Origin: Selaginella tamariscina
Lineage: Eukaryota; Streptophyta; Lycopodiopsida; Selaginellales; Selaginellaceae
Length of the DNA: 64,000 bases
Direction of reading: 5' to 3'
NCBI GenBank assembly: GCA_003024785.1
Contig: PUQB01000517.1
Location: 62,001 to 126,000 of the forward strand
In this document: positions 12,501-62,605 of the stretch, piece by piece
Layout of the letters: every line of letters begins with the position of its first letter
Position numbering within the stretch: position 1 is the first letter of the stretch
Notes under the pieces: model-generated
What the model was told of the DNA's origin: nothing
Databases searched by the model: none
Seen by the model: only the letters and a program-made list of their open reading frames with translations
Translations under genes and position numbers: made by a program

Positions 12501-13600
12501 AATCAAAGATTTAAGTCATAATATATATTAAGAAATGTATATGGAATGTAAAATTAAGATAACAATAAATTAATATTAAGAAACAGAGATTTTGATGGAA
12601 ATACATTGTTGAGAATTGTATGTGAATATAAAATTAAAATAAAAGTACATTGAATGAATGTTATCAATAGCCAATTTTGTTATTGTTTTATTTTATTAAT
12701 ATGAGTTTAATTATTAATAATATAATAATAATATATAGGAATATAAATATGAGACTATTAATATAAGTCGAATTATAAACTACATAATTACATATTCTCA
12801 CATGAATTACATTTTATTTAATACCTTTTTAATTTCATTTTTATTATTTATATTATTCCAAGTGTCTTTTGTTATATCTATTATGTTTGTCCTATTCATC
12901 CTCTCCATACAATATTCATCTTCTTATCATTGCTAATTACTCTTTATAATTATCCATATTTTAATATAGTAACTGGTTTATTTTATATTATCCATATTCT
13001 AATAATTTTATATTAATAATAAGGCCTTCTTATAGTTATAACATACTTGTTTTTTAATTCATTATAAGTCCATGTTTCATTTTATCATCTTATTACTATC
13101 AGACCTCTTTAAAACTTTAATTAAATGTGGAAAGTGTAAATTGAAGTAGTCTTCATTTTGTACATTAACCCGCGTCTTTACACTAAATATACAATTCTTA
13201 AAACTTTCACTAATTTCCATACGAAATATATTGTATGGTATTTTTTATTTTCCATTTAATAAGTATAATTATCTACATACATAAGTAAACACCTACGCAA
13301 ATTTTAATATATAGAGATTATGTTATTTATATAAGAAGTCTACTATTATAACATGTTTTATTAAAGTTATTATAATGTGTATTTTATAAAAATAAAACTA
13401 ATAAAACTATATAATACATTACTGTATAAATAAAAACTACTTTTGAATTATAGTCATTAATGTGTACCAAAACTCTTATCGTAAATGGCACGTATCGTCA
13501 TTTAATTTATTAGATCCTTAATAATCAATACTTATATTCATAAAAATATACCTTAGCATAAAACATTTTATTTTATATTTTACAAAATCAAATTAAAATC
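9561..13600. other. AT-rich intergenic DNA with microsatellites
   Basis: No gene seen. The DNA is very AT-rich with many poly-A/T and AT runs. CA-type microsatellites occur at about 10511-10530 and 11029-11044. An 8-bp-scale duplication of CTTACATGCATGCTACC-like sequence occurs near 10007 and 10078. Confidence 0.6.
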
Positions 13601-13610
13601 TATGACCAAC

Positions 13611-13709
13611 TTGACCTCAAGTCAGTCAAGAGGTCAAGAGTGCAAAAGATTCTATACCAACGCATTCACCAAATTATTGAAATTAACGCATTTTTTGCAC
13701 AAAAGTCAA
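13611..13709. promoter_or_regulatory. Cluster of four W-box cores upstream of the hevein-Hint gene
   Basis: TTGACC lies at 13611-13616 on the plus strand. Reverse-strand cores lie at 13624-13629 (AGTCAA), 13632-13637 (GGTCAA) and 13704-13709 (AGTCAA). TTGACC/T is the W-box core bound by plant WRKY factors, which commonly drive pathogen- and elicitor-responsive genes. Three cores within 27 bp, about 200 bp before the start codon, is a typical arrangement for a defence gene. Function is inferred from motif only. Confidence 0.5.
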
Positions 13710-13775
13710 GACTGAACTAATCCAAGAACATGACTTAATCACTAATGCTAATTAAAATTAAGAATCTATTAAGAG

Positions 13776-13783
13776 TATATAAA
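13776..13783 (+). promoter_or_regulatory. TATA box of the hevein-Hint gene
   Basis: TATATAAA sits 57 bp before the last base preceding the ATG. This would place the transcription start at roughly 13805-13815 and give a 5' UTR of about 30 bases. Confidence 0.65.
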
Positions 13784-13839
13784 CACACTCCATTTATATA
13801 CAACACAGTATAGTTAAACAACGTCTAGAAGAGCAAAAT

Positions 13840-15064
13840 ATGGCTGTCTTTAAGTGTTATGTCTTGCTTGTCACTTTTGTTTTGCTGAATATTACTACAT
13901 TTGTTTATGCTCAAGATGGACGTTGTCCTTGTGCAAGAGGCCAGTGTTGTAGCAAGTATGGCTACTGTGGAACAAGTAATGCTTACTGTGGTAAAGATTG
14001 TGCTTCCCAATGTCCAAGCTGTTTCCCAGGTAGTTTTATACTAATATAATAATACTGTGATTTTTTCACTGGACTATTTGTTTTTCTTATTGCAGGTGAT
14101 GCTATGGTGTACATGTCAACTGGTGAAACTAAGTTGATGAATAAGCTGACTGTGGGTGATAAGGTGGGATTTCATTCTTTAATTACTGTATTATACTTAT
14201 TTACTTATAAGTTATAATTAAATCAGTTGTAACTACAGTGTAATATTAATAATTAATTTATTTTTTATTAAATTAATAATGATATAAAGCATAAAACAAG
14301 TTTGCTTTCGCTAAATTCATTGATTATAACGTTGTGCAGGTAGCAGTTTACAATGGCAAATATATTACTTATGAAGAAATCTATGCTTTTGGCCACAAAG
14401 ATGCTCAAGCCTTCTCAGAGTTTGTAAAGATAGAGATTGTGGGTGACCAAGTGAAACAACTAGAGATTACCAAAACCCATTTTCTATCCATCATATCAAG
14501 TAATTATAAGTCAAGTGGTTACCATTAATTAATCTCACATTACGCAGGTGACGGATCATCTGTTCACAAACGCGCCCAAGATGCCAAACTCGGCGATGTT
14601 GTTATGGTGTCCAATGCTTCCCTGCAACAAACACTTCCTTACGTTATAAGTGGTAAAACAATCTAAACAAGATTAATTACTGCATAATATTATTTACTTA
14701 TTTTGTAGGAATATCGACGGTGGACAAGGATGGGCTTTACAACCCGTACACAATGAGTGGTAACTTGATTGTCAACGATATTGCAGTTTCATGTCACAGC
14801 GAGTGGTACCTAGACGGAATATTCGATGCGATGAACCTAACACACATGCTACCAACTGTCTACCAGATTGTTCTATTCCCAGCTCGACTACTGTATACAA
14901 TCCTTGGAAAGGATCTCTATATTGCAGCTTACAACTCCCTAGATGCAAAACTTGACATTGCAGTGTTTGGTACAAAGTACGGTGGTAAGGTTGCTGCGAC
15001 TGCAGCAGTGGCAGCCATCTTTGGGCTCTACAAGGTGTCAAAAAAATACAAGATTAAGGCCTAA
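13840..15064 (+). CDS. Secreted hevein-type chitin-binding protein fused to a Hog/Hint autoprocessing domain (5 exons, 292 aa)
   Basis: My exon model is 13840-14029, 14096-14163, 14340-14499, 14548-14652 and 14709-15064; all junctions are GT..AG and the frame stays open for 292 codons. Residues 1-24 form a signal peptide. Residues 25-58 are a hevein (chitin-binding type 1) domain with all eight cysteines (29, 31, 36, 37, 43, 50, 54, 58). Cys61 opens a Hint domain with CFPGDA, then LTVGDK (81-86), a TKTH motif (130-133), LGDVVMV (154-160) and a closing block [17 protein letters not shown] (185-203) like that ending hedgehog Hint domains. Residues 204-292 contain FPARLL and an alanine-rich hydrophobic helix near 270-283, placed where hedgehog proteins have their sterol/adduct-recognition region. 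Family knowledge predicts thioester formation at Cys61 and release or esterification of the hevein peptide outside the cell. Intron 3 is only 48 bp. No damage is seen. Confidence 0.9.
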
Positions 15065-16214
15065 TTCAGCTGATATAACCATCTTAAGTGGTTCAATAAT
15101 TTGAATTAAATGAAGATATTGTTTAAACAATGTGATCAACAATATTAAATTTTTTATAGTACTTGATACAAGGCTGGATGTTGATATCTCTTTAAGGTAT
15201 ATGTCCAAACGCTTACAAGTGCGTGTGTGTACCCGTGTGCGTGTGACAGTGGCATAGTTTTCAGGAAGTTAAGGGGTGATTACGCTCACATTCTTAGTAA
15301 CATGAACCTAAATATAAACAAAAACTTTTGAATAAAAGTTAATACATATATGCATATGTCTATATTAAAGTACATTTTATGTATTTACTTAAATTCAATT
15401 AGAATGATTTACTTTATATGAAGTTAAAACTTACATAAATTTAAATCTATTTATGATTTAAATATATTCTTAAATTGTCATTTCCCAATGACAACAAAGG
15501 AGACAGTTTATATTCTATATAATATTTTAAGACATTGAAAATGAAAAAAAAAAAGAAATAAAAAGAAATGCATATAAATATTTTGAGTGCACATGTACAT
15601 TATACTCCATTTTTATAAAAAGATATTACATGTGTGTGTAGATGCGCGCACACGCTTCTTGTTAATTAGATGAAGTAGAGTATTTTACTTTGCAATTATT
15701 AGAGGAGTTAATTCTTGAAACCATTCTTCTAAACGATATAAGATTATATAACTAATATAATAGAGAATTCAAATTGAAAAAATGAAACATTAGTTTCCAG
15801 TGAATGAAGTTCTAACTAAATCAAGAGTGCTCCGACAATACTTACATGTGAGTGGACACTGTGTGTCACACATTCTTATTGAAATCACAAAAAATTGATG
15901 AAGTTTTATCAATTACTCCATGGAAAGAAAATTTACACAACTGTATGAAATATTAAATTATTACTATCATTATAAAAAAAGAAAAAACTTTATATTTATC
16001 TGATATATCAAAGTCTGAAAGATCTATATACGTTTATAAATCTTGTTTAATTTTAGAATTATTTTGTATATTTACAACAAAACTTTGCAAGAGAAAATAA
16101 AGTGTATTATAGATCTCTTTAGAAAATTGTCGTTTAAAAACGTTCATTTATATACACACCAAGTTTATAAGTTTTCACACAAGTCTGCATATAGTTGCAG
16201 TTCTTATGTATATA
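15065..16214. other. AT-rich 3' flank without a recognised gene
   Basis: No coding region is supported. The 3' UTR and polyadenylation site of the hevein-Hint gene probably lie in the first 150 bases, but no canonical AATAAA is close to the stop. Short alternating GTGTGC/GCGC tracts occur near 15220 and 15640. Confidence 0.5.
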
Positions 16215-16222
16215 TTATATAT
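16215..16222. repeat. Left target-site duplication of the MULE-like element
   Basis: TTATATAT occurs immediately left of the terminal inverted repeat and again immediately right of the other end (24143-24150). Eight bp is in the size range of Mutator superfamily duplications (8-11 bp). The AT-rich sequence could match by chance, which limits confidence. Confidence 0.6.
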
Positions 16223-16320
16223 GAGGATTGGCAAAAACCGGGCTTCGTACAACGGGCTTTTCGCATATTCCCGAATATCCAGGAATATTCTGTCAAATAA
16301 AAGGGAATATTCTAGAATAT
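16223..16320 (+). repeat. Left terminal inverted repeat and subterminal GAATATTC cluster
   Basis: The outer 25 bases pair with the right end. Inside it lie perfect GAATATTC at 16283-16290 and 16305-16312 and near copies at 16273 and 16315. Repeated short palindromes just inside the ends are the usual form of transposase-binding sites. Confidence 0.6.
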
Positions 16321-16421
16321 TTTGCCAAGTAGATTATCTTTAACTTTCATTATAAAATACCGACCAACAAGTGAAAAAACGCTAATTATTTGCCGACTAG
16401 ACTTTACTATACCGACTAAAC

Positions 16422-19400
16422 TTAAAAAGTCGTAGGTTCGACATTGCGCTTGCAACCAACCAATAACCGATGCACTTCTGCTGGAGTAAGGGTCCGCCTT
16501 TGTAAGAAGTAAGTAATCGTTGGGTCTAATCCAAGAACATGAGTGTACACAAAATACATGTGTTGGCAGGGCTCCAGTTCTTGGCTTTCTGAAAAGTTGC
16601 ACAAGTGCATGACGGAACAGCAGAAATTGTTACCTTAGCAGATTGCATGCTTGCAGAGACAATGAAGGCCTCAGTCTTCCCTCTTTGAACCACCTCCACG
16701 TTGTTGATCCGACCTTGAAGAATCTTTGCCTGGTTGTAATGTTTCTCATGTTCCTTGGACATTCTTGTTGGTGTTCGCACACTCCGTCCATGGTATGTTG
16801 GTACTCTATGTGCTCCCTCTCCTCTTGGTGGTGATGGTGTTCGATCCATTCGGCTACTACTGTCGTCTACCATTTCTTCAAATCCCTCCAACTTGAATCC
16901 TGCTTTCAGAAGAGCTTCAACCTCATTTGCATTCAAGTTTGTTCCTTTTTGAACTGGCCAAACCTCTGGAACTTCTGGAATACTCTCAGGAGGAATCCCT
17001 GCATATGGTCGTCTGAAGCAACAAGAATCGCGTGGGCAGAACCATAGCATCTGATGAGTGAACTCAATGTTCCCAAATGCATTTGTATATTGCCGTCTAC
17101 CGTGAAATCCTGGTGCCGGTACACGATGTGGATATCCTATGGGTCTGCCACACTTGCTGTTACCGTCCTGAGTGAGACCTAGACATTTCACCTGACTTGC
17201 CTCCCCAATGCGTCTGATGGCCCACTGAGTCATCAACGTCTCTCTTTCAGTGACATTGACATCTTGAAACTTGAGTTTTTTCCTGCGTGCATTTGGGATG
17301 ACTTGTTCTGCATATTGTGTGTCATGTCTATGTGTACGAAGTGCATCAATCCCATGGTCCCCAGTTGACGGTTGACGAACGGTTCGAACACGAACATTTG
17401 TTGTAGAGGCAAACTCTGGACTTGCAAGATGCTCTTCATCACTAACAAGATTTGCAAAAGTTGTTGGAGACACTGATTTTCCCGCTGAAAGTTTCTGCTG
17501 TGCACGTTTCAGAAGAGTTTCCATGGAAGGACCTGTGCCTGAATATCTCCCTTCAAATGATGCCTTGACCTTTGCACTTTGGAAAACAGCATCTGTTAAA
17601 TCTAACATTGTTGCCTCCAACAAAGGAACACGCTTCGTCAGCCTTGCTCTTCGTGCTCTTGCATGAACAACTTCGGAGTTGTTAGTGGTAGGCACATTCG
17701 CAACACCATCTTCTGTCAAGTCAATTATCTCTGTCATGGAAATATGATCTTCATGTCTTGCCCACCATGACAGCCATGTTTGCAAAGCGCTAACGTTACT
17801 GGACCTGCCTTCCCAAAATGACTCCAACATTACTCGTCGTTCCAACTTATCTTGGTTGGTTAGTGCTGCAGGCCATGAGCGTGCAAGGTTCATGTGCTCC
17901 TCCCTGTGTTCCTCAAGTATCCACTTCTTTGTAACTTGACGCACTGACTGCATGTAATGGAACAAACAACTCCTTTCTCTTCCTCTCATCTTTGACCCAT
18001 TGTTGAAAACTTGACGCAATGCTAACCAAATTGCACCTGACTCATCTGACATGAACCCCGCAAAGTTCACATTATGAAGTCCTTGCTTGCTGCACACTTG
18101 AAGCATAGTGTTCAAAAATTTGATCACCGCCACACTATCCTCCCTGATCATGTCACCATAAGCAAGTGTCACCATCGACCTTAAACTACAAACATAAGTG
18201 CATTATATTAGTAAGTATTTTAAAACATAGATATGTTAATACTTACAATGGATCATAGAGATGTATTCCCAGTGTACACCAATCATCAATACGATATGTG
18301 TGGTCTAGCACCACCCACTGCTGTTCGAGATCACCTCCAGATTGACACCTTCTAATGTAGTCTATTCCGGATCCTGGGCCGGCAACTGTCATTTTGAAGA
18401 TTAAAGGCTGCTCTTCAGCTCCGTTGAGGTCCATTCCGGGTATGTGGATAACATGTATGAATGGGATTGATAGCTTCTTCTTTAACTGCAGAAGTCCTTC
18501 GTAACCTTCTTTGAAACGAGTGTCTGTTGTTCTAGCCTGAGATATCCATTCTCTTGTTCTACATTGGAAAGGTTAAGCATCTCCAAAAGGAAATAATAAT
18601 TTTTTTGCTTACCGGCGGTGATTTGTGAGTGGTAGTAGATCTGACAGAACCTTGTCGTATGATACATCTCCAGAATCTGTTACCAGTTTTTCCAAAATTA
18701 TATTGCGTGCTGCTTGAAACTCTATGACACGTTGATTAGTTCTTGGGGTTGCAGCGACTGCTTTGTTGATTGTCTCCTTAGCTCTGTCTTTAGAGACCAT
18801 GGATTCGGGTGGTCTACGTGGGTGTTGATGTTCTCCAAGATGGATGAAAAGCCTCGTGCATGTGATATCATCTGGAATTATGTAATATGCAACAACGGAG
18901 CATGTCTGCACTAGAAGGGGCTCATTGTTGCAATGCACACACTTCATTCCAAGCACTCTACCATCTGAAGATAACTGGACTTTATCAATGGTGCCCTTAA
19001 ATTGGCAGTCATTTGCTTTCTTACTGAAGCTGATGAACGGACATGTTTCCTTTACGCATTTCATGTGGCCAATACATGAACTGCGACTAACACGAGCTGG
19101 AACATTCCAATGTGTTGTGCAGCGTTGAGTCCAGTAATCACACCCATCCTTCCTATTCATCCCTTTGTACTTGTCCTTCATTGTTTCGTGTGCTGGCAAC
19201 TCGTAAATCACATTTCCGTTGCAATCTTCTGGGACCTCAGCAACTTGCTGAATCGATGACGAGACCCCAGTTGCTTCCCAATCCTACATCTCTGACTATT
19301 GCGAAGTATTGTTACCATAGAATTGTCCCGATCTGTTGTCTCCAACCGGAATAGCGGTCCCTTTGGAAGGAAGAAGTGTGTAATACACAAAACTGCTAGC

Positions 19401-19592
19401 TCTTGCCCCTTCTGGTTCTACCTCAACATTCGCAGCATCTCCACCAACAACAGACATCAAATGCAGCACTTTAAAAGATTGCCAAGGTGGAATGTCAAAT
19501 GCAGACCTGAGATCTGTTTCAAAGACAAATGCAATACCATCTTCATCTGCAGGGAAGTCCTTGTCAACACCATTGTAGCTGATTCTTGCCAT
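16422..19592 (-). CDS. MULE-type DDE transposase with N-terminal zinc finger and SWIM finger (multi-exon, frameshifted)
   Basis: Start is the ATG at 19592 (MARISYNG). Clear introns lie at 18559-18612 and 18186-18246. Two in-frame TAG codons near 19290 need a further short intron or are mutations. Order of parts: a unique N-terminus; a Cys/His finger (about 19140-18850) ending in HLGEHQHP, like the GCM/FLYWCH-type fingers of MULE proteins; the catalytic core with Asp in LDHTYRID (near 18300), Asp in FMSDES (near 18050), a C-x2-H motif at CLFHYM, and Glu in TNNSEVVH (near 17680); a Cys-rich insert (17190-17020); and a SWIM finger whose CTCATF half (near 16590) is in one frame and PCQHMYF half in the next. 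The single-base shift between these halves breaks the C-terminus. About 1000 codons if repaired. It would cut and rejoin the element ends. The divergent neighbour is the methyltransferase gene. Confidence 0.8.
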
Positions 19593-20017
19593 GTAGCAAA
19601 AATGGAACAAACAAAAGTTAAAATTCAAAGACAATGAACATATTACACACGATGGTTAATGTGTTTGTTAGTCGTGAGGCAATCATTTCATTGACAAATA
19701 TTAAAAATAATATTAATTGCGTGCGTCTGGGTAGAAGAGTGAAATTAATTTACTGCGTCTGGGTAGGTTTTTTGTAAATTAAAAAGTTTTACTATGTACA
19801 AGTGGCGATCATGCATGCAATATGTTTACAGAAATTAGGTTGGTTTTTAATTGATTTAGGGCGGCTAGGGTTTTGCAATTAGGGCGGCTAGGGCAGCTAG
19901 GGCGGCTAGGTTTTCGTGGAGCAGGGCGCATTTGGGGGCATAGCGTGGAGCAAGTGTGGCTCCAGGGATTAATCACAATAGGCTTCCATTGAGGGGGTGA
20001 GTATTTTCTGATTTCTT

Positions 20018-20052
20018 CATGATCTGCTCATGATCTTTTCATGATCTGTTCA
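20018..20052. repeat. TCATGATCT triple repeat
   Basis: TCATGATC(T) occurs three times about 12-13 bp apart, each with a GATC core overlapping the palindrome TCATGA. The repeat sits just before the larger palindrome array. It may be a protein-binding or adenine-methylation target; that is speculation. Confidence 0.4.
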
Positions 20053-20086
20053 TCTTTTTACATCTCTTCACAGTTGCAAGAAATCC

Positions 20087-20521
20087 GAGTCGGCCTGCCG
20101 ACTCGGACTGACTTCGTTGTCCGTCCCAGTCGGCAGGCCGACTGGGGTGGACTGTTCCAGATCCAGTCAACATTTTGACCGGGGTTGACTGTTCCAGCCC
20201 CAGTCAGCATTTTGACTAGGGTTGACTGTTCTAGTCCCACCTAGCATTTTGACTGGGCCTTGCTTCGTTCCCAGTCCCAGTCAGACTGGGCCTCCCTTTG
20301 TTGCCAGCCCAGTCGGCATGCCGACTGGGCCTCCCTTTTTGCCAGGCCAGTCCATGCCGACTGGGACTCCCTTTGTTGCCAGCCCAGTCGGCATGCCGAC
20401 TGGGACTCCCTTTGATGCCAGTCCCAGTCGGCATGCCGACTGGGACTCCCTTTGTTGCCAGCCCAGTCGGCATGCCGACTGGGACTTACAGCAACTGCTC
20501 TCTCAGTCGGCACGCCGACTG
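20087..20521. repeat. Array of about eleven 18-bp palindromes spaced at 37-40 bp
   Basis: The core is CAGTCGGCATGCCGACTG, a perfect palindrome, found exactly at 20310, 20385, 20425 and 20464. Near copies lie at 20087 (ends G/C, centre CT), 20127 (centre AG), 20348 (2-bp deletion) and 20504 (one change). Degenerate copies lie at 20164, 20201 and about 20240. The right-hand six are 37-40 bp apart, with similar spacers containing GGACTCCCTTTGTTGCCAGC. The array lies in the shared promoter, just upstream of the ParB-methyltransferase gene. Half-sites GCCGACT also occur near both transposon ends. Confidence 0.9.
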
Positions 20522-20606
20522 TGAGGGCTAGTATGTTTTTTTAATTTTTATTAAACATCTTTGAACATTTATTACAGTTTTTTGTTAAACCTTATTGCTT
20601 TTGTAG

Positions 20607-23600
20607 ATGCGCTCTTCACAACGTTTACAAGAAAAGAAGATGAAGGAGCCTACTGAGAGAGAAGCAGAAGCTAGAGCTGCAATTCAGAGAGGGCGTCGGG
20701 GTCGTGGGAGAGGAAGTAGGAAGCTGGCTGTGGTTCAGGAACAAGGACCTTCAAGTGATGCTCCAGTTGAACAGGCAAGCCAGCAGGACTGGTCAGGAGA
20801 GCAAGAGGATGTAGTTCAACCCCAACAAGAACAATCAGACTTTGTTGAAGAAGTTGAGGATGATGTCTTACCACAGGAGACACAGGAGCAGACAGAAGGC
20901 ACACAAGCCTCATGCGCAGTGACTTTGTCGAGTGACGAAGAGGATGAACCCAAGAGCAAGAAGAGACGACGCAAAGCTGCTGGAGATTCAGAGGCTGCTA
21001 AGAAGAAGAAGAAGGGAAAGCAGAAGTGCCAGATAATGAGGAAGTTTACAACATTGCAGCCAGCATGCATTCGGAGAGTGCAGTGCGTCTTCTCGCGAAG
21101 ATCACAATCCGAGAATATGGAGAGGCACCGGATGTCCCTATTTGCCGAATTCTGGGAAATGAGCAGGTGCGGAGAGTCAATCCAGCGGATCTGGAATCTT
21201 TGACTAGGAGTTTCAAGAAGGCAGTTGGTTATTTGCGCAACACCACTCAGTTCATCCTTCAAGTTGGGGACCCCATGACAGATGCAGATCTGGCAGCATT
21301 GAGAAGCGATGAAGCGATGTATGCTCAGCATTTGGCTTTTGAGGAGGAGCTTCAGTCGACATGTTCCGGCAATGGGCACCAATGCTTTCGATGAAGAAGT
21401 TCATCTGTTGGGATGGTAATCACAGGCTAAAGGTGCTTCAGAAGCTGTACACAGAAGACACGGAAGATAAGAATCAGTGGGCAGTGAGAGTGCGTTCAGG
21501 CTTCATCCGTGCTGGGGTCATGGATAATCTTCAGCTTGTGACAATGTTTCAGCAAATTAATAGGTAAACATAGTGACCTCTAGATCATAGGATTAACTAA
21601 CTTCGAGATTTTCAAATATGCAGTTCCTCCGCAACGGCAGTGCAAACCACACTGCCACATCTTCTGCTATCTGTGAAGACATGTTGCACCAGTGAGGAGG
21701 GCACAGCGAAGATCTTGGCCAGGCTCAGTGACAAGGAACGAGATGACATAAGAAAGTGGAAGGAAAGCGCAACTGGACAACAAGCTTGGCATCCACTTCC
21801 TTTCTGTTTTTTTCAAAGATCTTTTTTGAGGTACCACGTCTCACACTTATATACTTAGTTGATTACGTCTGTGAATTACAGAGTGAGATTGAGGATGATC
21901 TTGAGAAGGCTGCAAGGGCATCCAAAGGCAACAAATACCAGGAGCAACAACAGGTCTACATTAAGCATGACAAGCGCATGATGAAGATCTTAGCCATCAT
22001 CGATCCTGCATTGGGTGAAGAGTGGTTCGACAAGGTGACCCAAATCACATGGAAACAATGCAGATGGATGGGGTTGGAAAAGCTGTACGCGCTTTCAAGG
22101 GCGAGAATTCCAAACGAGACGAGAATCATGTACTTCAATAAACTGGTACGTCTCGATCTGAAGAGAGAGCAAGAGACACTTGGATTGCCGGGTGTTCAGG
22201 ATAAGGAGTGGATAAGGTGGTTTACTATCGATTTGTATTGGCGGCAATCAGAGAGGAGGCAGTACAGATTCTCACGGGACTCATCGAGGATGGCGAGTGG
22301 AGCAGGCCGGTTACAGATTTCACGACTTGGTACGATGAAGTGCGGGTAAAATGCAAGAACGTGATGTTCCAGCCATTCCATGAGTGTGTGAAGTTCACTT
22401 ACTCCATAGAGCCGAAAGAGTTCCTCGAACACGAAGAGACAGCAAGAAGGATGATTTGGAGGTAAGGATGATCTTCTTGACATTGTTACATTCTGACACT
22501 ACTATATGTTCATTACAGGTATGTCGCAGCGAGAAAGGTGCCTCACACACAGACTATGGTATTCTGGTCAGATTACATGGAAGCACCACACATGTGGTCG
22601 AAGACAAGATCTGGCCTGACAGAGTTCGAGCGTGTACACGTACCGTTCTGGCTTGATTATCCACCTGGGCAACCACCAACATGGGAGAAGGATCTCTACA
22701 ATGAACACTCAAAAGATCTCCCATGCATCTCATGGGATCCGGCAGAGGTCGACTTCATTAAGAAGACAAAGGCCAAGGCAAAGCGGCGTCAGCCTGTGCA
22801 GCAGTCAAAGAAGACCTCAGATACAGTAGCTGGCACCTCCACTACTCGCGATCCAGCTGCCTTCTTCAATTTATCTGAAGTGCTACCATCGCAGGGAACC
22901 ATGGACATCAAGGATGACTTGGTCACATTCGTCCCTTCACTTGCTACAACTCGAGGTGATAATTTCTTGGCGATTGATGACATCGAGGAGATGCAACAGG
23001 CCGTGCTCACGGATGAGAAGGAAGAGGAGGTTCCTGACGCTAGACTGGTTCCTTATAGAAAAGTTCAGACACAGGTGGCCAGGTACCATACAGCTGACAG
23101 CCAGACTCGCTACCAGCATATTGCGGGAGAATATGGTTTCAACTTGGTGATCTTCGACCTTCCAAATGGGACCTTGCCAGGAAATACAACGAGTGATACG
23201 CCATACCTCTACCTTGATCCAGTGAAGTTCGATGAAGCACTCCAGTTTGCAGGTATGCATATGGCTGCAAATGGTTGGTTGGTTGTGTTTGCTGCAGCAA
23301 ACACCTGGGATCAAGTTGTCCGAGCTGCAAGTGTGGTGGACCTTCAACTTGCTGCAACGTACTACATCTACAGAGGGCGTGGTTGGGGCTACCGCAACAA
23401 GATGAAGGTACTTTTTTCTTTATTCATGAAGTTCATTAATGATTTTTGATGTTTTAACAGGAGAGCATCCTGCTCCTTCTTGTCTTCCAAGATGCATCTA
23501 GAGGATTGCGCGATAATCCGCTGCGTTTGTCATCAACAATTCTTGTTGATAATCCTGAGCGGTTCCAAGAACCATGGTAGGCATTTCATTTCAACAAATT

Positions 23601-23924
23601 TAAGTATTTACCATTATCTTCACATGCAGGATGGACTACCAACCGAAGAGCACTCGATTGATGCAGCTCGTGATAGAACGACTCACCCGGCCAGGTGATC
23701 TTATCTGGGATATAGGCAGTGGTACGGGGTCCTCAATGCTTGCAGCTATCGAGCTGGGGAGAAACATTGTTGGGACTGAGAAGAACCCTGAGCTCGGGAG
23801 AATTGCTATGAACAGGATTAAAGAGAACATCCAGCCAGAGGAAATCCCAACCCAACCAATAGCGACGTCAAGTAGGACTGGTGGTTCACGAATTGCAGCA
23901 TTGCTCAATCGTAAGAAGAAGTGA
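20607..23924 (+). CDS. ParB-like domain fused to N6/N4-type DNA methyltransferase (multi-exon, frameshifted)
   Basis: Start is ATG 20607. Exons by GT..AG: 20607-21563, 21624-21830, 21882-22461, 22519-23407, 23461-23576 and 23630-23924. The first 140 residues are charged and low-complexity with basic KKRRRK-type nuclear signals. A ParB/sulfiredoxin-like segment follows (about 21040-21560), with VRRVNPADLESL and the signature DGNHRL from 21412. After a helical linker comes the methyltransferase: motif IV-like DLPN (23156-23167) first, then the motif X-like PKSTRLMQLVIERL and motif I DIGSGTG (23709-23729), then an acidic GTEKN. This order is that of the beta-class N6-adenine/N4-cytosine enzymes. 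ParB-methyltransferase fusions are known in phages and bacteria. Frame changes near 21015, 21350, about 21810 (a T7 run) and about 22205 break this copy. DLPN replaces the usual DPPY, so activity is uncertain. Confidence 0.8.
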
Positions 23925-23954
23925 CAAGTGTTGAATTGTACTCTTTGGTGTTGA

Positions 23955-23960
23955 AATAAA
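23955..23960 (+). terminator. Polyadenylation signal of the methyltransferase gene
   Basis: AATAAA lies 31 bases after the stop codon, the usual position of a eukaryotic polyadenylation signal. Confidence 0.5.
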
Positions 23961-24044
23961 ACTTTAATAATACAGTATAAACATGGCTATGATTAAATAT
24001 TTTTTGTTGTTAATTGCCGACTGAGCCAAAATCCTAAATTCTAA

Positions 24045-24142
24045 GAATATTTAGGAATATTCTAAGAATATTCTGGTAGATTCTTTAGAATATTCCGGGT
24101 CCAAGCCCGGAAGCCCGGAAGCCCTCTTTTTGTTCGGGACTC
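24045..24142 (-). repeat. Right terminal inverted repeat and subterminal GAATATTC cluster
   Basis: Perfect GAATATTC copies lie at 24055-24062, 24066-24073 and 24088-24095, with a near copy at 24045. The outer end contains two AAGCCCGG copies and pairs with the left end through GGGCTTC and CAAAAA. The adjacent TTATATAT (24143-24150) is the right target duplication. Confidence 0.6.
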
Positions 24143-24150
24143 TTATATAT

Positions 24151-24885
24151 AAGCAGGTTTGCATGCTTCCGTTATGCAGATAAACACAGTGATTAAATCT
24201 GTAGTCGAAAAATGTTACGGAAGTGTTTAATTATTAATTTATTAATTATTAATCTGTAGCATTTTTTTACTACGGCATATATCACTGGATAAACATATTA
24301 TAAATTATGTATATACACACACGCACGGATTTGTCCACTAAAATACTTGACCATATATACGACAAAACTAATTTATTTAAAAGGTTTTATAAATTTAAAG
24401 TTATAATAATATTTATTTCTTAAAACACGAAATGCAAAGACCTCTCTTACTATAAGTTTAATTATTGTAAAATCAGTCGTGTTTAAAAAATTTATAAGTG
24501 TTTTTTCTTTTTCTTTTTCATGTTATGTATTTTTTGGGTATAATGTCATCCTATTGCATCACAAAAGTTGATCACTCTATATAAAACATCTATATACATA
24601 ACAACTTAAATAAAAGTATAGAAAACATCTATATATATATATAGCGAGTTAAATAAAATTATTTTCAGCAAACAGTATTTTTTTAAATTTTAATTTGAAA
24701 TCAGCTCCAGCGATCCAGCATAAACATGTTAAAAAGTGTGTGTGCGTGGGTTTCTTATATATAAGTTGTGCATGCTTCCATTATATTGCAAATATTGTAT
24801 ATACAGAGACACGTACTGGAGGTATAATATCTATTAAATATTTAAATTTGAGATTTCAATACTAAGACTTACAAACGTTGTAAGT
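24151..24885. other. AT-rich DNA right of the transposon
   Basis: No gene seen. A motif TTATATATAAG followed by GTGCATGCTTCC/GTTTGCATGCTTCC occurs at about 24143 and again at about 24756, a small dispersed repeat of the host DNA. Confidence 0.5.
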
Positions 24886-36502: not shown

Positions 36503-38954
36503 CGGCCCCTAGCTTAATAAGAAATAAGTTCACTTTATTTCTCATCATCATTACTAACAGTTTGAGACCTTGCCTTAAACTCCTTCACTATCTCCATCAC
36601 ATTATGTAGATTATCCAATGGTTCCCATGTCAACTCGCTTGCTGGGTAACCCTTCCACTTAACAAGATATTCTCGTTTACGTTTCCGCGTCCCTCGGCAT
36701 TTAATATCCTTTGCATCCAAAATCAACTCAACTTCAAACTCCTTTGTATCGCCGATCAACTCAGGAAGTGAACGTAAGTTTTTATATCTCTACGGATGTT
36801 TCTCATCCTTGTGGAATGGCTTGAGTAAATTGACATGAAACACATTGTGTATTGTTCCCAACTCCAGAGGAAGATCTCACTCATAAACCACTTTCCCTAC
36901 TTGCTTCACCACCTTGTATGGACCTATGTAGTGCGATAGAAACTTCCTCAAAAGAGTCGTCAGAACCTTCAGGTTTTGGTACTCAACAATACCATATCCC
37001 CAACCTGATACTTTACATCCCGCCGATGCTTATCGTACTATTGACGATACCTTTCTTGTGCTGCAGCCATTGCTTGACGAGCAGCTTCCCATGTCCGATA
37101 CAATTGTCCCGTGAACTCTGCTACAGATGGAACTCGATTGCTATCGTCTTTCAGTAACACCATACTCTGAGGAATACCACCCTTATTCCCAGTTAACACT
37201 TCCATCGGGCTACATCCGATTGCAGTGTGTCGAGTTATTATAACATATCTCAGCCATATCCAAGTGTTCAACCCAATCAAGTTGATCACCTTGAACATAA
37301 CATTTGAGATAGTCCTCGACTTGTCGATTCACTCTCTCCGTTTGACCATCTGTTTGCGGATGGTAAGCCGTACTGAACTTCAGCATTGTACCAAACTGAT
37401 TAAACAATGTCCCCCAAAACTTCCCAATAAATCGAGGATCTCAATTTGAGATCATGGTTTCCAGTAGTCCGCGCACTCTTACGACCTCGTGGAAGAACCA
37501 CTTTGCTACTTGTTTTGCATTCACTGTCTCTATAGTTGGAACAAAATGAGCAACCTTTGAAAACCGATCGACTACCACCATGAGCGCATTAAAACCACAA
37601 GATTTTGGCAATCCCATGATAAAGTCCAAAGTAACACTTTGAAATGGCCGCTCTGGAATCGGTATACACTGTAACTTCCCAGTTCATTTTGGCGATCAAC
37701 TCTTTACTTGTTGACATGTGGGGCATGTCTTGACATACTTGGCAACATCATCTATCATACCCGGCCAATAGAATCCCTGTTTCAACAAAGTCAATGTCTT
37801 ATGCCTCTTCCACCATGTCCTGCCAAAGGAACGTCGTGATGCTCTCTTAACAACCTCTCCCTCCATGTCCCTTCTGGAACATAGAGTCTCTTTTCTTTAT
37901 AATAAAGAACTCCATCTCGTACCGTAAAATGACGTCTATTTAAGTGCATCCATTCGACTTTCTATTCCCGCTGGAATATTATCATCTTTTCGTAATTGAT
38001 GAACTTGTTTCCTCTTTGCTACCAGGCTCAAAGCCTCCTTAGCAAACTCGTCCTGAGGATACGCCGTCACAAATTCATCCACCAAAATTGACACGGGTGC
38101 TGACATAATCCGAAGATGGCCTTTCCTACTGAGTGCATCAGCTATCACATTATCCTTTCCCGCTCTATGTTTGATTTCATGCTGAAATCGTGCCAACTTT
38201 TGTTGCCATCTAGCATACTTCGGCGATAGCTTCGGCTGCGTTTCAAAATACCTTAGAGTTACACTAGCTGTCCAAACCACAGTGCCATGACTTGGAAGAC
38301 AATACTCCAAGGAAGCAACAATAGCATACATCTCCTTTTCATGAGTAGGCCATCGAGTTTGCGTGGCATCTAACTTCTTCGAGAAAAAAGGACATTGGAT
38401 ATCCTTTCTGTTGCAATACACCACTAATTGCAAAGTCAAAAGCATCACATTCTACTTCAAAGGGATCTTCAAAGATGGGCAATTGCAAAACTGGCTCAGA
38501 AGAGATAGCCTCTTTGAGTTTGACGAACGCACGTTGGCACTCTAGAGTCCAATGCCATGGACAGGGTATTACCGAAGATTCATAAAGGGTTACTCAGAAA
38601 TAGCGGCCCCATTGACAGATCTTACGAAAAACAGACCAAGAAATGATCTAGCTTCATACACATCTTTTAAAGTCATCCACTCGATAATAGCTTGAATTTT
38701 CTTTGGATCCATGGCAACCTTCCCACCTAAGATCAAGTGTCCCAAGAAATCTATCTTGGTTTGACCAAATGCACACTTGCTTTCTTTAGCATATAACTGG
38801 TTCTCTCTCAACCTCTGAAACACTTTTCTAAGTGTTCCACATGTTCCTCAATTGTCAAACTAAAATCAGAATGTCATCAATATACACCACTACGAACTCG
38901 TCTAGATAGTCTCTAAACACATCATCCATCATTGTACAAAAAGTTGCTGGAGCA
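36503..38954 (-). pseudogene. Minus-strand chromovirus, pol 3' half (RT to chromodomain)
   Basis: This is the left part of an element split by the insertion at 38960. From right to left: RT thumb with FGQTKIDFLGHL (38823-38590), RNase H (38448-37936), and an integrase zinc finger and core (37860-37200) with MDFIMGLPKSCGFNALMVVV and a STAYHPQTDGQTERVN-type segment. A chromodomain at 36759-36535 contains REYLVKWKGYPASELTWEPL. The chromodomain would direct integration by binding modified histone H3. Several frameshifts interrupt the frame. Confidence 0.8.
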
Positions 38955-40231: not shown

Positions 40232-43200
40232 GTGTTGACACTAGGGTTCAATACGATGAGCAAGAGAAAGAACCAAAGCCTGAGGCAGAGAGGGCTGTCG
40301 CAGAGGCTCAAAATGAGGAGATGGATGAGGCTGATCCAGGTCGACCCCCTAGAGTTAGACAACGACCTCGTTGGCGAGAAATTGATGGATGCTCTAAATG
40401 AACTTCGAGGGGATGTTTTGGGGTTGAACGACCAAATCGATAATGTTGCCGTTCGGATTCCGACGAATACTACAGTGCCAGATGTTCCGCAACCAGACAC
40501 GCGAAAAAAAAAGAAGAAGCATGACTCAGAGTCAGGTTCCTCTGAATCAGATTCTTCGACAGAAGAAGGTGGTAGAGGTCCCAGTAAATTCAAACCGGTA
40601 AAGCCTTCGAATTTCATGGGTTCAAAGGATTACAAGGTTTTGGATGACTAGTTGTATGATATGGAAAGCTATTTTGAGGCTGCTTCCGTGAGAAAGACTG
40701 AAAAGGTTGCATGTGCCAAGCAGTTTCTTAAAGAAGAAGCTAAGACTTGGTGGCGAATTGTTGAAGGTGAACGTGGATACCAAAACAGCTGGAAGCACAT
40801 GAAAAAGGAGATCAAAAAGCAGTATATGCCGGATGATCTCGGTTTGCGATTGCCTGCTGACCTGGCACTTTGTCAACAGGTTCGGGGAAGTCGAATGGAC
40901 CACGTCTATCGATTCGAAAGTGTACGGCGATTCGTGCCAATATGAGTGATGATGAAGCTCGAAGTTGCTTCATGGCTAGCTTGAATGAGAAGACGCTAAG
41001 AGAAATCTTAAGGTACAAGCCAACAAGCTATCGGGAATGTCAAGAGGCAGCTCAAAAGGTTGCTTATGGCATGTCGTTAGAAGACTTGTACAAAGGGGAG
41101 GAAGCAAAACCTAAACCAAGGAAGTTTCCTCCAAAGTCTGGGTTCAGAAGGTTTGATAGGCGACCAGATCAATCGCCATCAGTTCAAAGTGCAAGTCCCT
41201 TTGTCGGCAGTTCCAAGTTCTCGGACACATCAAGATCCACCGGATTTCGGAAACCATTGGCGTTACCACCTCCTCAGCAGGCCAAAGGATCGGCTCCAAA
41301 GTCTGCTCCCCCGCATTCCGCAGGCGGGGTTGTGAAATGTTATAATTGTAAAGAGTGTCAGGCACCCTCACAACAATCAGGACATTTCAAGGCGATGGTA
41401 GAAGAGGAAGTTGCTGAACCAGAAACGCTTGAAGATCCGGAAGATGAGTCAGAAGAGGTAATGTTGTGCCAGACACAACCTGCCTTATTCGCTATTCAAG
41501 ACAAAACTGACCCTTTGCTATATTTGACAGGAAGGATACGAGGGGACCGACGAGTCCGAATGATGATCGATACTGGAGCAACATACAACTTCATATCGAC
41601 TAGTCTAGCTCATCGATTGAATTTGGATGTAATAAAGATGTGTGAAATAAAGATCAATTTTGGCAAAGGTTCTCAAAATACTAATAATATAGCAAGGGCA
41701 GTTCCTGTCCAAATCAAAGATTGGAAGGCTAAGCTAGACTTAGTTGTCTTGAATATGACGGGGTTTGACTTTGTTTTGGGTATGGAATGGTTCCATAAAC
41801 ATGTAATTGAAATGAGATTCCAGAGATAATTGAATCACGCTTGCAGCAGATAAAGAGGACATTAGAAAGACCACGCTCAAAATGGAAACACTAACTGATA
41901 AGGATTGGAATCCTATGTTCCTTACCTTAACTCAGTTGCGTAAGGCAGTTAGACATCGGGAACGTGTGTTTTTGCAATGGTTTTGGATATTGGTGAAGTC
42001 AAAATAGGAGATGGTCAAGAATCTGTTCCTGAACCTATTTTGGAAGTCTTGAACATGTTTAAGGATGTGTTGCCAGAAGACTTGCCGCCCGAATTACCTC
42101 CACGTCGAGCTGTGGATCACAGGATAGAGATTTTGCCAGGTTCGTCTCCACCGGCAAAGAGCCCCATATCGGTTGAATCCTCAAGAGTTAGTAGAATTGA
42201 AGAGACAGCTGACAGAATTGATTGGTCGAGGACACATTCGACCTAGTCGATCACCGTATGGTGCACCTATCTTGTTTGTAATGAAAAAGGATGGTACGAT
42301 GCGAATGTGTGTGGACTATCGAGCACTGAACGCGATAACTATCAAAATAAGTATCCTCTTCCACGAGTGGACGACTTATTTGATAGGCTATCGAAAGCAA
42401 AGTATTTTCAAGAATAGACTTGAGATCTGGGTACCATCAGATTCGGGTAGCAGAGAATGACATTGAGAAGACCGCTTTTCGAACGCGTTATGGATCATTT
42501 GAGTTTCTAGTCTTGCCATTCGGGTTGTGCAATGCTCCAGCAACTTTTTGCACAATGATGGATGATGTGTTTAGAGACTATCTAGACGAGTTCGTAGTGG
42601 TGTATATTGATGACATTCTGATTTTCAGTTCGACAATTGAGAACATGTGGAACACTTAGAAAAAGTGTTTCAGAGGTTGAGAGAGAACCAGTTGTATGCT
42701 AAAGAAAGCAAGTGCGCATTTGGTCAAACCAAGATAGATTTCTTGGGACACTTGATCTCAGGTGGGGAGGTTGCCATGGACCCAAAGAAAATTCAAGCTA
42801 TTACTGAGTGGATGACTTAAAAGATGTGCATGAAGTTAGATCATTTCTTGGTCTGACAGGGTATTACCGAAGATTCATAAAGGGTTACTCGGAAATAGCG
42901 GCCCCATTGACAGATCTTACGAAAAATTCCATGGCATTGGACTCCAGAGTGCCAACGTGTTTCGTCAAACTCAAAGAGGCTATCTCTTCTGAGCCAGTTT
43001 TGCAGTTGCCCATCTTTGAAGATCCCTTTGAAGTAGAATGTGACGCTTCCGACTTTGCAATTGGTGGTGTATTGCAACAGAAAGGACATCCAGTGTCCTT
43101 TTTCTCGAAAAGTTAGATGCCGCGCAAACTCGATGGCCTACTCACGAAAAGGAGATGTATGCTATTGTTGCTTCCTTGGAGTATTGGCGTCATTATCTTC

Positions 43201-44910
43201 CAAGTCATGGCACTGTGGTTTGGACAGATAGTGTAACTCTAAGGTATTTTGAAACGCAGCCGAAGCTATCGCCGAAGTATGCTAGATGGCAGCAGAAGTT
43301 GGCACGATTTCAGCCTGAAATCAACATAAAGGGGGAAAGGACAATGTGGTAGCTGATGCACTCAGTAGAAAGGGTCATCTTCGATTATGTCAGCACCCAT
43401 GTCAACTTTGGTGGATGAATTTGTGACGGCGTATCCTCAGGACAAGTTTGCTAAAGGAGGCTTTGAGCCTGGTGGCAAAGAGGAAACAAGTTCATCAATT
43501 ACGAAGAGATGGTAATATTCCAGCAGGAATAGAAAGTCGAATGGATGCACTCAAACAGGCCATTTTGCGTACGAGATGGAGTTCTTTATTATAAAGAAAA
43601 GAGACTCTATGTTCCAGAAGGGACATGGAGGGAGAGGCTGTTAAGAGAGCATCACGATGTTCCTTTGGCAGGACATGGTGGAAGGCATAAGACGTTGGCT
43701 TTGTTGAAACAGGGATTCTATTGGCTATGATAGATGATGTTGCCAAGTATGTCAAGACATGCCCCACATGTCAACAAGTAAAGAGCCGATCGCAAAAACG
43801 AGCTGGGAAGTTGCAGTGATACCGATTCCGAGCGGCCATTTCAAAGTGTTACTTTGGACTTTATCATGGGATTGCCAAAATCTTGTGGTTTTAATGCGCT
43901 CATGGTGGTAGTCGATCGGTTTTCAAAGGTTGCTCATTTCATTCCAACTGTAGAGACAGTGAATGCAATTCAAGCAGCGAAGTTGTTCTTCCACGAAGTC
44001 ATAAGAGTGCGCAGGCTACCGGAAATGATGATCTCAGATCGGGATCCTCGATTTACGGGCAAGTTTTGGGGAACGTTGTTTAAGCAGTTTGGTACGATGC
44101 TCAAGTTCAGTACAGCCTACCATCCGCAAACAGATGGTCAAACGAGAGTGAACCGACAAGTCGAGGACTATCTCAGATGCTATGTTCAAGGTGATCAACT
44201 TGATTGGGCTGAACACTTGATATGGTGAGATATGTTACAATAACTCGATACACACTGCAATCGATGTAGCCCGATGGAAGTGTTAACTGGGAATAAGGGT
44301 GGTATTCCTCAGAGTATGGTGTTACCGAAAGACGATAGCAATCGAGTTCCATCTGTAGCAGAGTTCACGGGACAATTGTATCGAACATGGGAAGCTGCTC
44401 GTCAAGCGAATGGCTGCAGCTCAGGAAAGGTATCGTCAACAGTACGATTAAACATCGCGGGATGTAGAGTATCAGGTTGGGGATATGGTATTGTTGAGTA
44501 CCAAAAACCTGAAGGTTCCAACGACTCTTTCGAGGAAGTTTCTATCGCACTACATAGGTCCATACAAGGTGGTGAAGCAAGTAGGGAAAGTGGCTTATGG
44601 TTAGATCTTCCTCCAGAGTTGGGAACAATACACAATGTGTTTCATGTCAATTTGCTCGAGCCATTCCACAAGGATGAGAAACATCCACATAGATATCATA
44701 GTTTACGTCCGCCTCCAGAGTTAGTTGGTGAGGAGAAAGAATTTGAAGTTGAGGCGATATTAAAGAGGAAACATTCATGGACGCGAAAACGTAAACGTGA
44801 ATATCTTGTTAAGTGGAAAGGGTTACCCGGCATGCGAGTCGACATGGGAACCATTGGAGATCTGCAGAACGCGATGGAGTAGTGAATGAGTTTGAGGCGA
44901 GGTCTCAAAC
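40232..44910 (+). pseudogene. Chromovirus gag-pol, interrupted
   Basis: Gag spans about 40232-41370, with a KKKKKH acidic/basic segment and a CYNCKE knuckle remnant. Protease has DTGA at 41569-41580. RT spans about 42080-42800, with YIDD at 42603-42614. RNase H lies at about 42960-43400. The integrase zinc finger and core lie at about 43545-44230, including MDFIMGLPKSCGFNALMVVV and ISDRDPRF. The chromodomain lies at about 44740-44880 with REYLVKWKG. A TAG at 40651 truncates gag where the minus-strand relative has a tryptophan codon. At least eight frame changes occur in pol. It cannot make a full polyprotein as assembled. All domains are otherwise present and in the usual order. Confidence 0.85.
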
Positions 44911-61100: not shown

Positions 61101-62605
61101 TCCCTTCTTCGTTGAAGCAGATGCCTCAGATTTTACAGTAGGTTCTATCCTATCACAAGTTGGAAAAGACAAGTTATTCCATCCTGTAGCCTTTCACTCT
61201 CGTAAGTTCCTTTCGGTAGAGATCAATTATGAGATTCATGACAAGGAACTCAAGGCCATTGTGGATTCGTTTGAGGAGTGGTGGCACTTCCTAAAAGGCG
61301 CTGCCATCCTGTACAAGTTCTTACGGATCACAAGAACCTGGAGTTTTTTCAAACGGCTCAAGTTCTCAGTCGGCGACAGGCTAGGTGGGTGGAATTCCTG
61401 TCACGTTTTGATTTTGTCATCGTTTACAAGCCCGATTTTCGGAATGGCAAAGTGGACGCATTGTCTAGGCGCTCCTACCTTTCACTGACCCCGGGGATCC
61501 TGCATATGACTGTCAAAAGCAAGTGTTGTTGGGTCTTGATCGTTTTCGGCTTGCAGCACTATAAGTTCATCAGGCTTCAGCAAATTTAACACTTCTATAG
61601 GACATTCGTTCGCAGTTGGCTACAAACGACTTGGCAAAGAATGTGTTCTCACACATTAGTCCTAAGATTGCAAGCTCCTCTTCCTCCAGTTCCCATTTAG
61701 ACTACAAGTTATTCGCCATATAGGCCGGACTCTTGTACCGAGAAGGTCTCCTGTACATTCCTATTAGTGTTTGCAGGACTTGTGTGGTACAAGATTGTCA
61801 TGATACCCCGGTTACAGGACATTTTGGTGTGGCCAAGACAGTTGAGTTGGTGACTTGCAACTATTGGTGGCTTGGGTTGCAAGGTTTTGTGGAAAGGTTT
61901 GTACGGAGTTGTGACACCTGCAACAGGTTTAAGATGCCTCGTCACGCGCCCTTTGGTCTTCTTCGTCCTCTTCCTGTTCCTTCTGCTTCTTGGAGATCCA
62001 TTTTTATGGATTTCCTCATAGATGGATCCCCACATGATCATCTCCAACATCTTCGTTAGGTACAGGATGATCTCCGTGTTCATCTTCAGCAAGCATAGGA
62101 ACGGTACAAGCGTCATGTTAATTCTCATCTTCAGCCGGCACCTGCATACAAGATTGGTGATCTCGTGTGGCTTCTTCATTGGCATATTCGCACCAATAGG
62201 CCTTCTTCTAAGTTGGATTTTCAACGATTAGGCCCTTATAGGATTGCGGCTAAGGTCAATCCTGTAGCTTTTGGACTCAAGTTACTATCTACGGTGAAAC
62301 TTCATCCTGTGTTTCACACCTCCTTGTTGGAGCCGTATCATCCTTCTTCTCTTCCTGGTCGTGCTTCTTCTCCTCCCCCTCCTATGGTCATTGACGATGA
62401 ACCTGAGTACGAAGTTATAACCATCCTTTGATTCTTGTCTTCATCGCCGCCAACTTCAATACTTGGTGGATTGGAAAGGTTATTTGCCTACTGATCACAC
62501 TTGGGAACCTGTATCCAACTTACTCCATGCTTCTTCCAAGGTTGCTGCCTTCCATCGGCGTTATCCTGTTAAACTAACTCCCAAGACTCGTGGAACTCGT
62601 CCTTA
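58147..62605 (+). pseudogene. Tcn1-like chromovirus gag-pol with deleted integrase core
   Basis: Gag at 58147-59080 has a DAQKVGLLASLLFGSPWAWV core and one CCHC knuckle near 58965. A protease-like VDTSANAC lies near 59200. A long Ser/Pro-rich linker follows. RT at about 60114-60760 has PIYALSPTELEVL and VVIYLDDILIFS; RNase H is at 60760-61480. The integrase zinc finger is at 61733-62010. After MDFLIDGSP (near 62030) the sequence jumps to the integrase C-terminal part near 62050, so the catalytic D,D-35-E core is missing. A chromodomain (YLVDWKGYLPTDHTWEP) ends the frame at about 62605. The gag and RT style is that of fungal and moss Tcn1-type chromoviruses, not the usual seed-plant ones. Several frameshifts occur. 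Confidence 0.75.

What the first reader, a model, noticed from the sequence alone, without database searches (positions are those of the whole stretch)
13840..15064. Plant gene fusing a hevein domain to a hedgehog-type Hint (Hog) domain
Seen: an intact five-exon frame with a signal peptide, an eight-cysteine hevein domain and, two residues after the last hevein cysteine, a Cys61-Phe-Pro-Gly Hint start. All Hint blocks are present. Known: hedgehog proteins use this module to cut themselves and attach cholesterol to the N-terminal signal. Hog-type Hint modules outside animals have been described in protists and algae, and I recall but cannot verify bryophyte cases. Inference: the N-terminal product is a 36-residue chitin-binding peptide released from, or lipid-anchored by, a self-processing carrier, a possible plant counterpart of hedgehog maturation used for chitin perception or defence.
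Basis: partly seen in the sequence, partly recalled or inferred. Interest (0 to 1): 0.93.

Follow-up and report, generated by a model that had tools for sequence, protein, structure and literature searches.

The report
Hevein peptide on hedgehog-type self-cleaving domain
A plant, most likely a clubmoss, carries genes that join a chitin-binding peptide to the self-cutting module that animals use to release and lipid-tag hedgehog signals, so it may release, and perhaps sterol-tag, a chitin-binding peptide by the same chemistry.

Summary
Confirmed and extended. Window 13840-15064 holds an intact five-exon gene for a 292-residue secreted protein: signal peptide, eight-cysteine hevein-type domain, hedgehog-type Hint module starting at Cys61, and an adduct-recognition-like tail. 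Hevein and Hint start share exon 1, so the join does not rest on a guessed intron. The gene belongs to a family: of 16 Hog places aligned in this genome, 14 have hevein-type sequence just upstream of the Hint and three have an intact frame. The two distinct intact genes are 69% identical with dN/dS 0.21 (hevein 0.13): purifying selection on the joined protein. Plant Hog proteins were known from mosses and Selaginella with other N-termini; none of 49 hit rows from three limited protein searches carries both domains. Where hedgehog has its general base (Asp303), this protein and 30 of 32 relatives compared have His, a change that engineered fly hedgehog tolerates while accepting more sterols. 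Best reading: a self-cleaving precursor that releases a 36-residue chitin-binding peptide, possibly with a sterol on its C-terminus. Cleavage, adduct and role are untested. Most likely organism, from assembly size and relatives: Selaginella tamariscina. New variant of a known kind.

The parts
13840..14029 (+). Exon 1: signal peptide (13840-13911, residues 1-24, judged by eye), hevein-type cargo (13912-14019, residues 25-60), Hint Cys61-Phe-Pro and first base of Gly64
   Evidence: Open frame and splice donor GTAGTT; Pfam Chitin_bind_1 4.8e-8
13912..14019 (+). Predicted released cargo, 36 residues, eight-cysteine hevein-type domain; Ser38/Tyr40/Tyr42/Tyr49 at the hevein Ser/aromatic sugar-binding positions (those positions recalled)
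   Evidence: residues 27-58 match PF00187; cysteine positions; hevein-type lectins among the PDB matches
14020..14022 (+). Codon of Cys61, nucleophile of the Hint module; scissile bond Ser60-Cys61
   Evidence: aligned with Hint position 1 = Cys258 of fly hedgehog
14096..14163 (+). Exon 2, Hint continued
14340..14499 (+). Exon 3, Hint: His105 at the Asp303 position, Thr130-x-x-His133 motif
14548..14652 (+). Exon 4, Hint middle
14709..15064 (+). Exon 5: end of Hint (to about 14800, with Cys203 of motif J), adduct-recognition-like tail (about 14801-15061, Gln227-x4-Pro232-x-Arg234), stop 15062-15064
   Evidence: highest 19-residue Kyte-Doolittle mean after residue 60 is 1.36, so no clear transmembrane helix
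13611..13709 (+). Four W-box cores (TTGAC/GTCAA at 13611, 13625, 13633, 13705), suggestive of WRKY control
   Evidence: 4 cores in 13580-13839; 30 of 3187 overlapping 260-bp windows of the whole window reach 4, this region's own windows included. Weak evidence
13778..13783 (+). TATAAA beginning 62 bases before the ATG

Best explanation
The gene makes a secreted precursor. After removal of the signal peptide the Hint module folds and uses Cys61 for an N-to-S acyl shift at the bond before it. The thioester is then attacked by a small nucleophile: a membrane sterol held by the C-terminal adduct-recognition-like tail and activated by His105, or water. This frees the 36-residue hevein-type peptide, either with a sterol ester on its last residue or soluble, which then binds chitin of fungi or arthropods at or outside the plasma membrane as a defence or sensing peptide. 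Shown here: the joined frame, both domains, the filled catalytic positions, the gene family and purifying selection on cargo, Hint and tail. Inferred: cleavage (about 0.8), sterol adduct (about 0.4), chitin-directed defence role (about 0.55).
For: Hint E 2.1e-30 and hevein E 4.8e-8 in one frame; PDB sequence matches are hevein-type lectins for the N-terminal part and hedgehog proteins (6tyy, 6td6, 1at0) for the rest. Cys61, TxxH and motif-J Cys203 are present. Position 303 is His in the window protein and in 30 of 32 other proteins compared (Tyr in P0027; Asp in P0036, animal-like by eye); in fly hedgehog D303H keeps structure and activity and widens sterol use (PMC9163320, passages). A model of the S. 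moellendorffii relative P0015 matches fly Hint best: mutant D46H (6tyy) first, wild type 1at0 second, both TM 0.85 by target. The tail keeps Pro232-x-Arg234, with Gln where the HPR motif of the sterol-recognition region has His (PMC7906309, passages). A second intact gene (L027; identical CDS in L035) has the same intron positions and phases and Gly before the Hint Cys; dN/dS 0.21 overall, hevein 0.13, Hint 0.23, tail 0.15. Four W-box cores upstream.
Against: No transcript, protein or activity data. The residue before Cys61 is Ser here, not Gly as in hedgehog. His of the HPR motif is Gln. The first hevein cysteine is displaced, and the model of exon 1 was of low confidence (pLDDT 56.7). The copy on C462 has frame breaks as assembled, 13 of 16 Hog places have breaks, and some degraded copies have lost the His105 equivalent (Arg in L032 and L044, segment altered in L026 and L033).
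Confidence: 0.66

Rival explanations
1. Hydrolytic release only (the water branch of the best explanation, so its odds overlap with it): the Hint module cuts at Cys61 but water, not a sterol, resolves the thioester, giving a soluble hevein-type antimicrobial peptide.
For: Ser60 at -1 and Gln for His in the HPR motif depart from hedgehog; no clear transmembrane segment; typical hevein-like peptides are soluble (recalled).
Against: The tail is conserved as strongly as the rest (dN/dS 0.15) and keeps Pro-x-Arg, which a purely hydrolytic module would hardly need.
Confidence: 0.4
2. No cleavage: the protein works uncut as a two-domain secreted protein, the Hint fold being a structural remnant.
For: Ser before Cys61 in this copy; many copies in the genome are degraded.
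Against: Hint Cys, TxxH and His105 are kept in both distinct intact genes and His in 30 of 32 relatives compared.
Confidence: 0.12
3. Decaying or artefactual locus: a chance join or a pseudogene not expressed as one protein.
For: As assembled and aligned, 13 of 16 Hog places in the genome have breaks; the collinear copy on C462 has a 1-base deletion at the end of exon 1 and a 2-base deletion in exon 2.
Against: Three of 16 places are intact, two distinct genes share intron positions and phases, and dN/dS is 0.21 over 289 codons with dS 0.92. Long-read indel error and my script aligner may explain part of the breaks (inference).
Confidence: 0.04
4. Contamination of the assembly by a fungus or protist.
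For: The hevein-only hits include anaerobic fungi (Neocallimastix).
Against: The Hog groups with Selaginella, moss and liverwort Hogs; spliceable introns; a collinear second contig over about 27 kb of the window in pieces at 86-96% identity; hevein-Hog copies on several contigs of the same assembly.
Confidence: 0.01

Closest known systems
Plant Hog proteins of mosses and Selaginella (Buerglin 2008, PMC2362128, passages; here P0001, P0002, P0004, P0005, P0014-P0016, P0018 of S. moellendorffii, P0003 of Ceratodon purpureus, P0017 of Marchantia paleacea)
   Same: Signal-type N-terminus, Hog at the C-terminus, 35-47% identity to the window protein, CFPGDA start, YxFGH(K/R) and, in all but the short P0018, HSEW after motif J
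   Different: N-termini are a ~200-residue domain, proline-rich stretches, four-cysteine peptides or almost nothing; none of the ten has a hevein match. Motif-J Cys is replaced in all ten; it is present here
Hoglet of the choanoflagellate Monosiga ovata
   Same: Polysaccharide-binding N-terminal domain (cellulose-binding) followed by a Hog (PMC2362128, passages)
   Different: Cellulose-binding domain and threonine-rich stretch in a choanoflagellate, not hevein and not a plant; its sequence was not compared here
Animal Hedgehog proteins
   Same: Signal peptide, N-terminal cargo, Hint with Cys nucleophile and TxxH, tail with Pro-x-Arg
   Different: No Hedge domain; His for Asp303; Ser for Gly at -1; Gln for His in the HPR motif
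Hevein-type plant chitin-binding proteins
   Same: Eight cysteines, aromatic residues at the sugar-binding positions (recalled), signal peptide
   Different: First cysteine displaced; followed by a Hint module

Membership tests
Hog (hedgehog-type Hint plus adduct-recognition region) | Hint profile PF01079 above the curated cut-off | tested here: met
   106.3 bits against 29.7
Hog (hedgehog-type Hint plus adduct-recognition region) | N-terminal Cys nucleophile and TxxH motif | tested here: met
   Cys61, Thr130-Lys-Thr-His133
Hog (hedgehog-type Hint plus adduct-recognition region) | Conserved tail after the Hint (motif K region, Pro-x-Arg) | tested here: met
   Pro232 and Arg234 invariant in the 8 sequences of A1; dN/dS 0.15 for the tail
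Hog (hedgehog-type Hint plus adduct-recognition region) | Self-cleavage and adduct formation | not testable with these tools
   Needs expression and mass spectrometry
Animal Hedgehog protein | N-terminal Hedge signalling domain | tested here: not met
   Only Hint and Chitin_bind_1 pass the Pfam cut-offs
Animal Hedgehog protein | General base Asp at position 303 | tested here: not met
   His105; His works there in fly D303H (PMC9163320, passages)
Hevein-type chitin-binding domain | Profile PF00187 above the curated cut-off | tested here: met
   33.6 bits against 27.8
Hevein-type chitin-binding domain | Eight cysteines in the hevein spacing | tested here: inconclusive
   Eight cysteines; the first is displaced to two residues before the second, and the loop before the seventh is shorter (hevein spacing recalled)
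Hevein-type chitin-binding domain | Chitin binding | not testable with these tools
   Needs a binding assay
Splicing intein | C-terminal splice junction with Asn and a downstream extein | tested here: inconclusive
   Pfam Intein_splicing only 14.0 bits against 35.8; the chain ends about 86 residues after the Hint with no further Pfam domain; the splice junction was not tested separately

The most novel reading that the evidence does not exclude
Lycophytes use Hog modules as a general, cargo-exchangeable system to release small cysteine-rich peptides and attach a phytosterol to their C-terminus; the hevein-Hog family would be the first plant proteins known (to my knowledge) to be sterol-esterified, giving a membrane-tethered chitin-binding peptide by hedgehog chemistry with a natural His in place of the Asp general base.
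Probability: 0.33. Interest if true: 0.92.

Novelty: new variant of a known kind. Interest (0 to 1): 0.76.

Why it matters
In the paper that described non-animal Hog proteins, most of their N-terminal parts matched nothing known, so what they release could not be guessed. Here the cargo is a domain of known fold and ligand. That makes the question of what non-animal Hog proteins do directly testable with one short construct and one mass measurement. A positive result would show protein sterol-esterification in plants, and hedgehog-type maturation serving a chitin-binding peptide outside animal signalling. The natural His at the general-base position is a counterpart to the engineered fly D303H enzyme.

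Tried and rejected
Gene-model artefact: rejected by the shared exon for hevein and Hint start, the second intact gene and dN/dS. Contamination: rejected by collinear contigs and plant relatives. A fusion unique to this locus: rejected once other hevein places were looked at. The model of exon 1 (pLDDT 56.7) was too weak to use. The spliced window protein was not handed to the structure tool because its rule asks for proteins read letter for letter from DNA; the S. moellendorffii relative P0015 was folded instead. The upstream W-box cluster is only suggestive. Whether other plants have hevein-Hog is not settled: three protein searches found none, but they need shared five-residue words, one search scored only the 7991 candidates sharing most words, and one search had only nine candidates. 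A first tree of 15 rows left the window Hog unresolved among the plant Hogs; in the second the plant backbone is also open.

Counts: of 47 hevein places, DNA around 30 (the window included) was looked at, with 1.5 kb or more downstream in most; 12 of the 30 had a Hog; 17 of 47 were not looked at. Whole-genome searches with Hint (12 matches; control genomes: 1 of 14 rings, none over the cut-off) and with P0001 (20 matches) then showed Hog matches on seven contigs: C857, C462, C700, C485, C1248, C498, C389. Both score only the best candidates. In one search pieces under 300 bases were dropped.

Script trouble: one search stopped with an error after the window and L027 and was redone; three minus-strand loci were read on the wrong strand and redone.

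Full report
Observation. The window segment 13840-15064 was rebuilt as five exons with GT-AG introns. The protein has 292 residues. Pfam-A finds Hint (PF01079, E 2.1e-30, residues 55-206) and Chitin_bind_1 (PF00187, E 4.8e-8, residues 27-58), each above its curated cut-off. By sequence the closest solved proteins are hevein-type lectins for the N-terminal part and hedgehog proteins (6tyy, 6td6, 1at0) for the rest. Exon 1 alone encodes the signal peptide, the hevein domain and Cys-Phe-Pro of the Hint start, so the join does not depend on a predicted intron.

Place in the genome. The window is G000:C857:62001-126000 of a 300.70-Mb assembly in 1391 contigs. Selaginella tamariscina is listed with a 300.73-Mb PacBio/Falcon assembly for a genome of about 150 Mb (PMC8558194, table seen among passages). 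Together with the Hog relatives this makes S. tamariscina the most likely source; this is an inference. In that copy the residue before the Hint Cys is Gly, and as assembled a 1-base deletion at the end of exon 1 and a 2-base deletion in exon 2 break the frame.

A family, not a single gene. Hevein places elsewhere in the genome were fetched in part (30 of 47 looked at, 12 with a Hog), and whole-genome searches with the Hint family and with P0001 added others. In all I aligned 16 Hog places: C857, C462, eight on C700, two on C485, two on C1248, C389 and C498. Hevein-type sequence lies just upstream of the Hint in 14 of 16, shortened or garbled in three of these (L032, L043, L044). In the aligned part of L042 (C1248, about 497 kb) no hevein was found. 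C498 (L038) has another cysteine-rich N-terminus and frame breaks as assembled. Three of 16 are intact: the window gene, L027 on C700 and L035 on C485; the last two have identical coding sequence and may be two haplotypes. The residue before the Hint Cys is Gly in 10 of the 14 hevein copies and Ser only in the window copy; the other three (L026, L033, L034) are degraded there. The number of breaks depends in part on my script aligner, which was given the L027 protein.

Selection. Window gene against L027: 69% identical residues over 289 codons, dS 0.92, dN 0.19, ratio 0.21; signal peptide 0.53, hevein cargo 0.13, Hint 0.23, tail 0.15 (Nei-Gojobori counts in a script, one pair, no standard errors; the short parts are rough). 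The four introns lie at the same places with the same phases. L027 has Hint E 5.3e-29 and Chitin_bind_1 E 1.1e-7. This is the strongest evidence that the fused protein is made and used.

Relatives. Three searches of 5.8 billion proteins gave 13, 31 and 5 rows (42 distinct proteins). None of the 49 rows has both PF00187 and PF01079 among its precomputed domains. Plant relatives by name are S. moellendorffii, Ceratodon purpureus and Marchantia paleacea. Their N-termini are a ~200-residue domain (P0001, P0003, P0017), proline-rich (P0004, P0005, P0014), short with four cysteines after the signal region (P0015, P0016) or almost absent (P0002). In a tree of 13 Hog domains the window and L027 form a pair (100/99) apart from the S. 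moellendorffii short-cargo clade of six (100/99); the plant backbone is unresolved, and a tree of 15 without L027 left the window unplaced among the plant Hogs. In C498 the intron after CFPG sits at the same place as the window's first intron, so exchange of cargo upstream of a common phase-1 intron is a possible path (inference).

Catalysis. On a script alignment of the window protein and 32 relatives with fly Hint, the Hint Cys is present in all but two rows that lack that stretch (P0019, P0033). The TxxH motif reads T or S, then H, in all but P0037, where the stretch is missing. At the place of Asp303 the window has His, as do 30 of the 32 others; P0027 has Tyr and P0036 Asp. In fly hedgehog D303H keeps structure and activity and accepts more sterols (PMC9163320, passages; the original paper was not held), whereas D303A blocks the transesterification step (PMC4695875, passages). 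The tail keeps the Pro and Arg of the HPR motif with Gln instead of His (PMC7906309, passages). A model of P0015 (mean pLDDT 80; residues 12-48 below 50) matches fly Hint best: 6tyy, the D46H mutant, first by E-value and wild-type 1at0 second, both TM 0.85 by target. It shows a Hint fold followed by helices.

How it probably works. Signal peptide removal, acyl shift at Ser60-Cys61, then attack by a sterol or by water, and release of a 36-residue chitin-binding peptide. The steps after translation are inferred. W-box cores upstream and the chitin-binding fold point to defence, weakly.

What is known. Buerglin 2008 (PMC2362128; passages and one section) reports Hog genes in Physcomitrella and Selaginella with a conserved upstream region not found in other organisms, no Hog detected in Arabidopsis and other higher plants, and Hoglet of Monosiga ovata with a cellulose-binding domain before the Hog. 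Full-text searches of the held library: hedgehog, Hog domain, Hint, moss (3 papers); hevein with Hint domain; Marchantia with Hint domain; Selaginella, hedgehog, hint (besides PMC2362128 passages of two were seen, neither on plant Hogs; the rest by listing only); Hint domain, chitin-binding, hedgehog (by listing intein and lipidation papers). None of these shows a report of this fusion. Most subscription papers are not held, so this is no proof of absence.

Verdict. A real, maintained fusion, a new variant of the Hog family. Its chemistry and role are open but easy to test.

Noticed in passing
window about 16200-24288: About 8.1 kb present in the window but absent from the collinear contig C462; it holds long frames (e.g. 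16526-18202 minus) without Pfam matches, probably a mobile element.
   Followed up: partly
window 37936-38451 (-), 40861-41829 (+), 44244-44882 (+), 60739-61488 (+): Pieces of LTR retroelements: RNase H, aspartyl protease and chromodomain matches.
   Followed up: no
L014:2208-2990 (G000:C762), similar hevein stretch on C91 (L013): Hevein domain fused to a glycosyl hydrolase family 18 domain (Pfam 2e-9 and 2.4e-7); plant hevein chitinases are usually family 19 (recalled).
   Followed up: partly
P0021: A Hog protein named as from a Geminicoccaceae bacterium metagenome assembly, with HSDW after motif J and Ser before the Hint Cys like the window copy; transfer or misbinning.
   Followed up: no
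P0031, P0023, P0030: Other Hog fusions among the hits: trypsin-Hog, EGF-Hog and AIG1-GTPase-Hog; Hog looks like a widely exchanged C-terminal module.
   Followed up: no
G000:C700 about 4.5-113 kb: Eight hevein-Hog copies on one contig, on both strands, seven with frame breaks as assembled: a decaying local expansion. A ninth hevein match at C700:469 was not looked at.
   Followed up: partly
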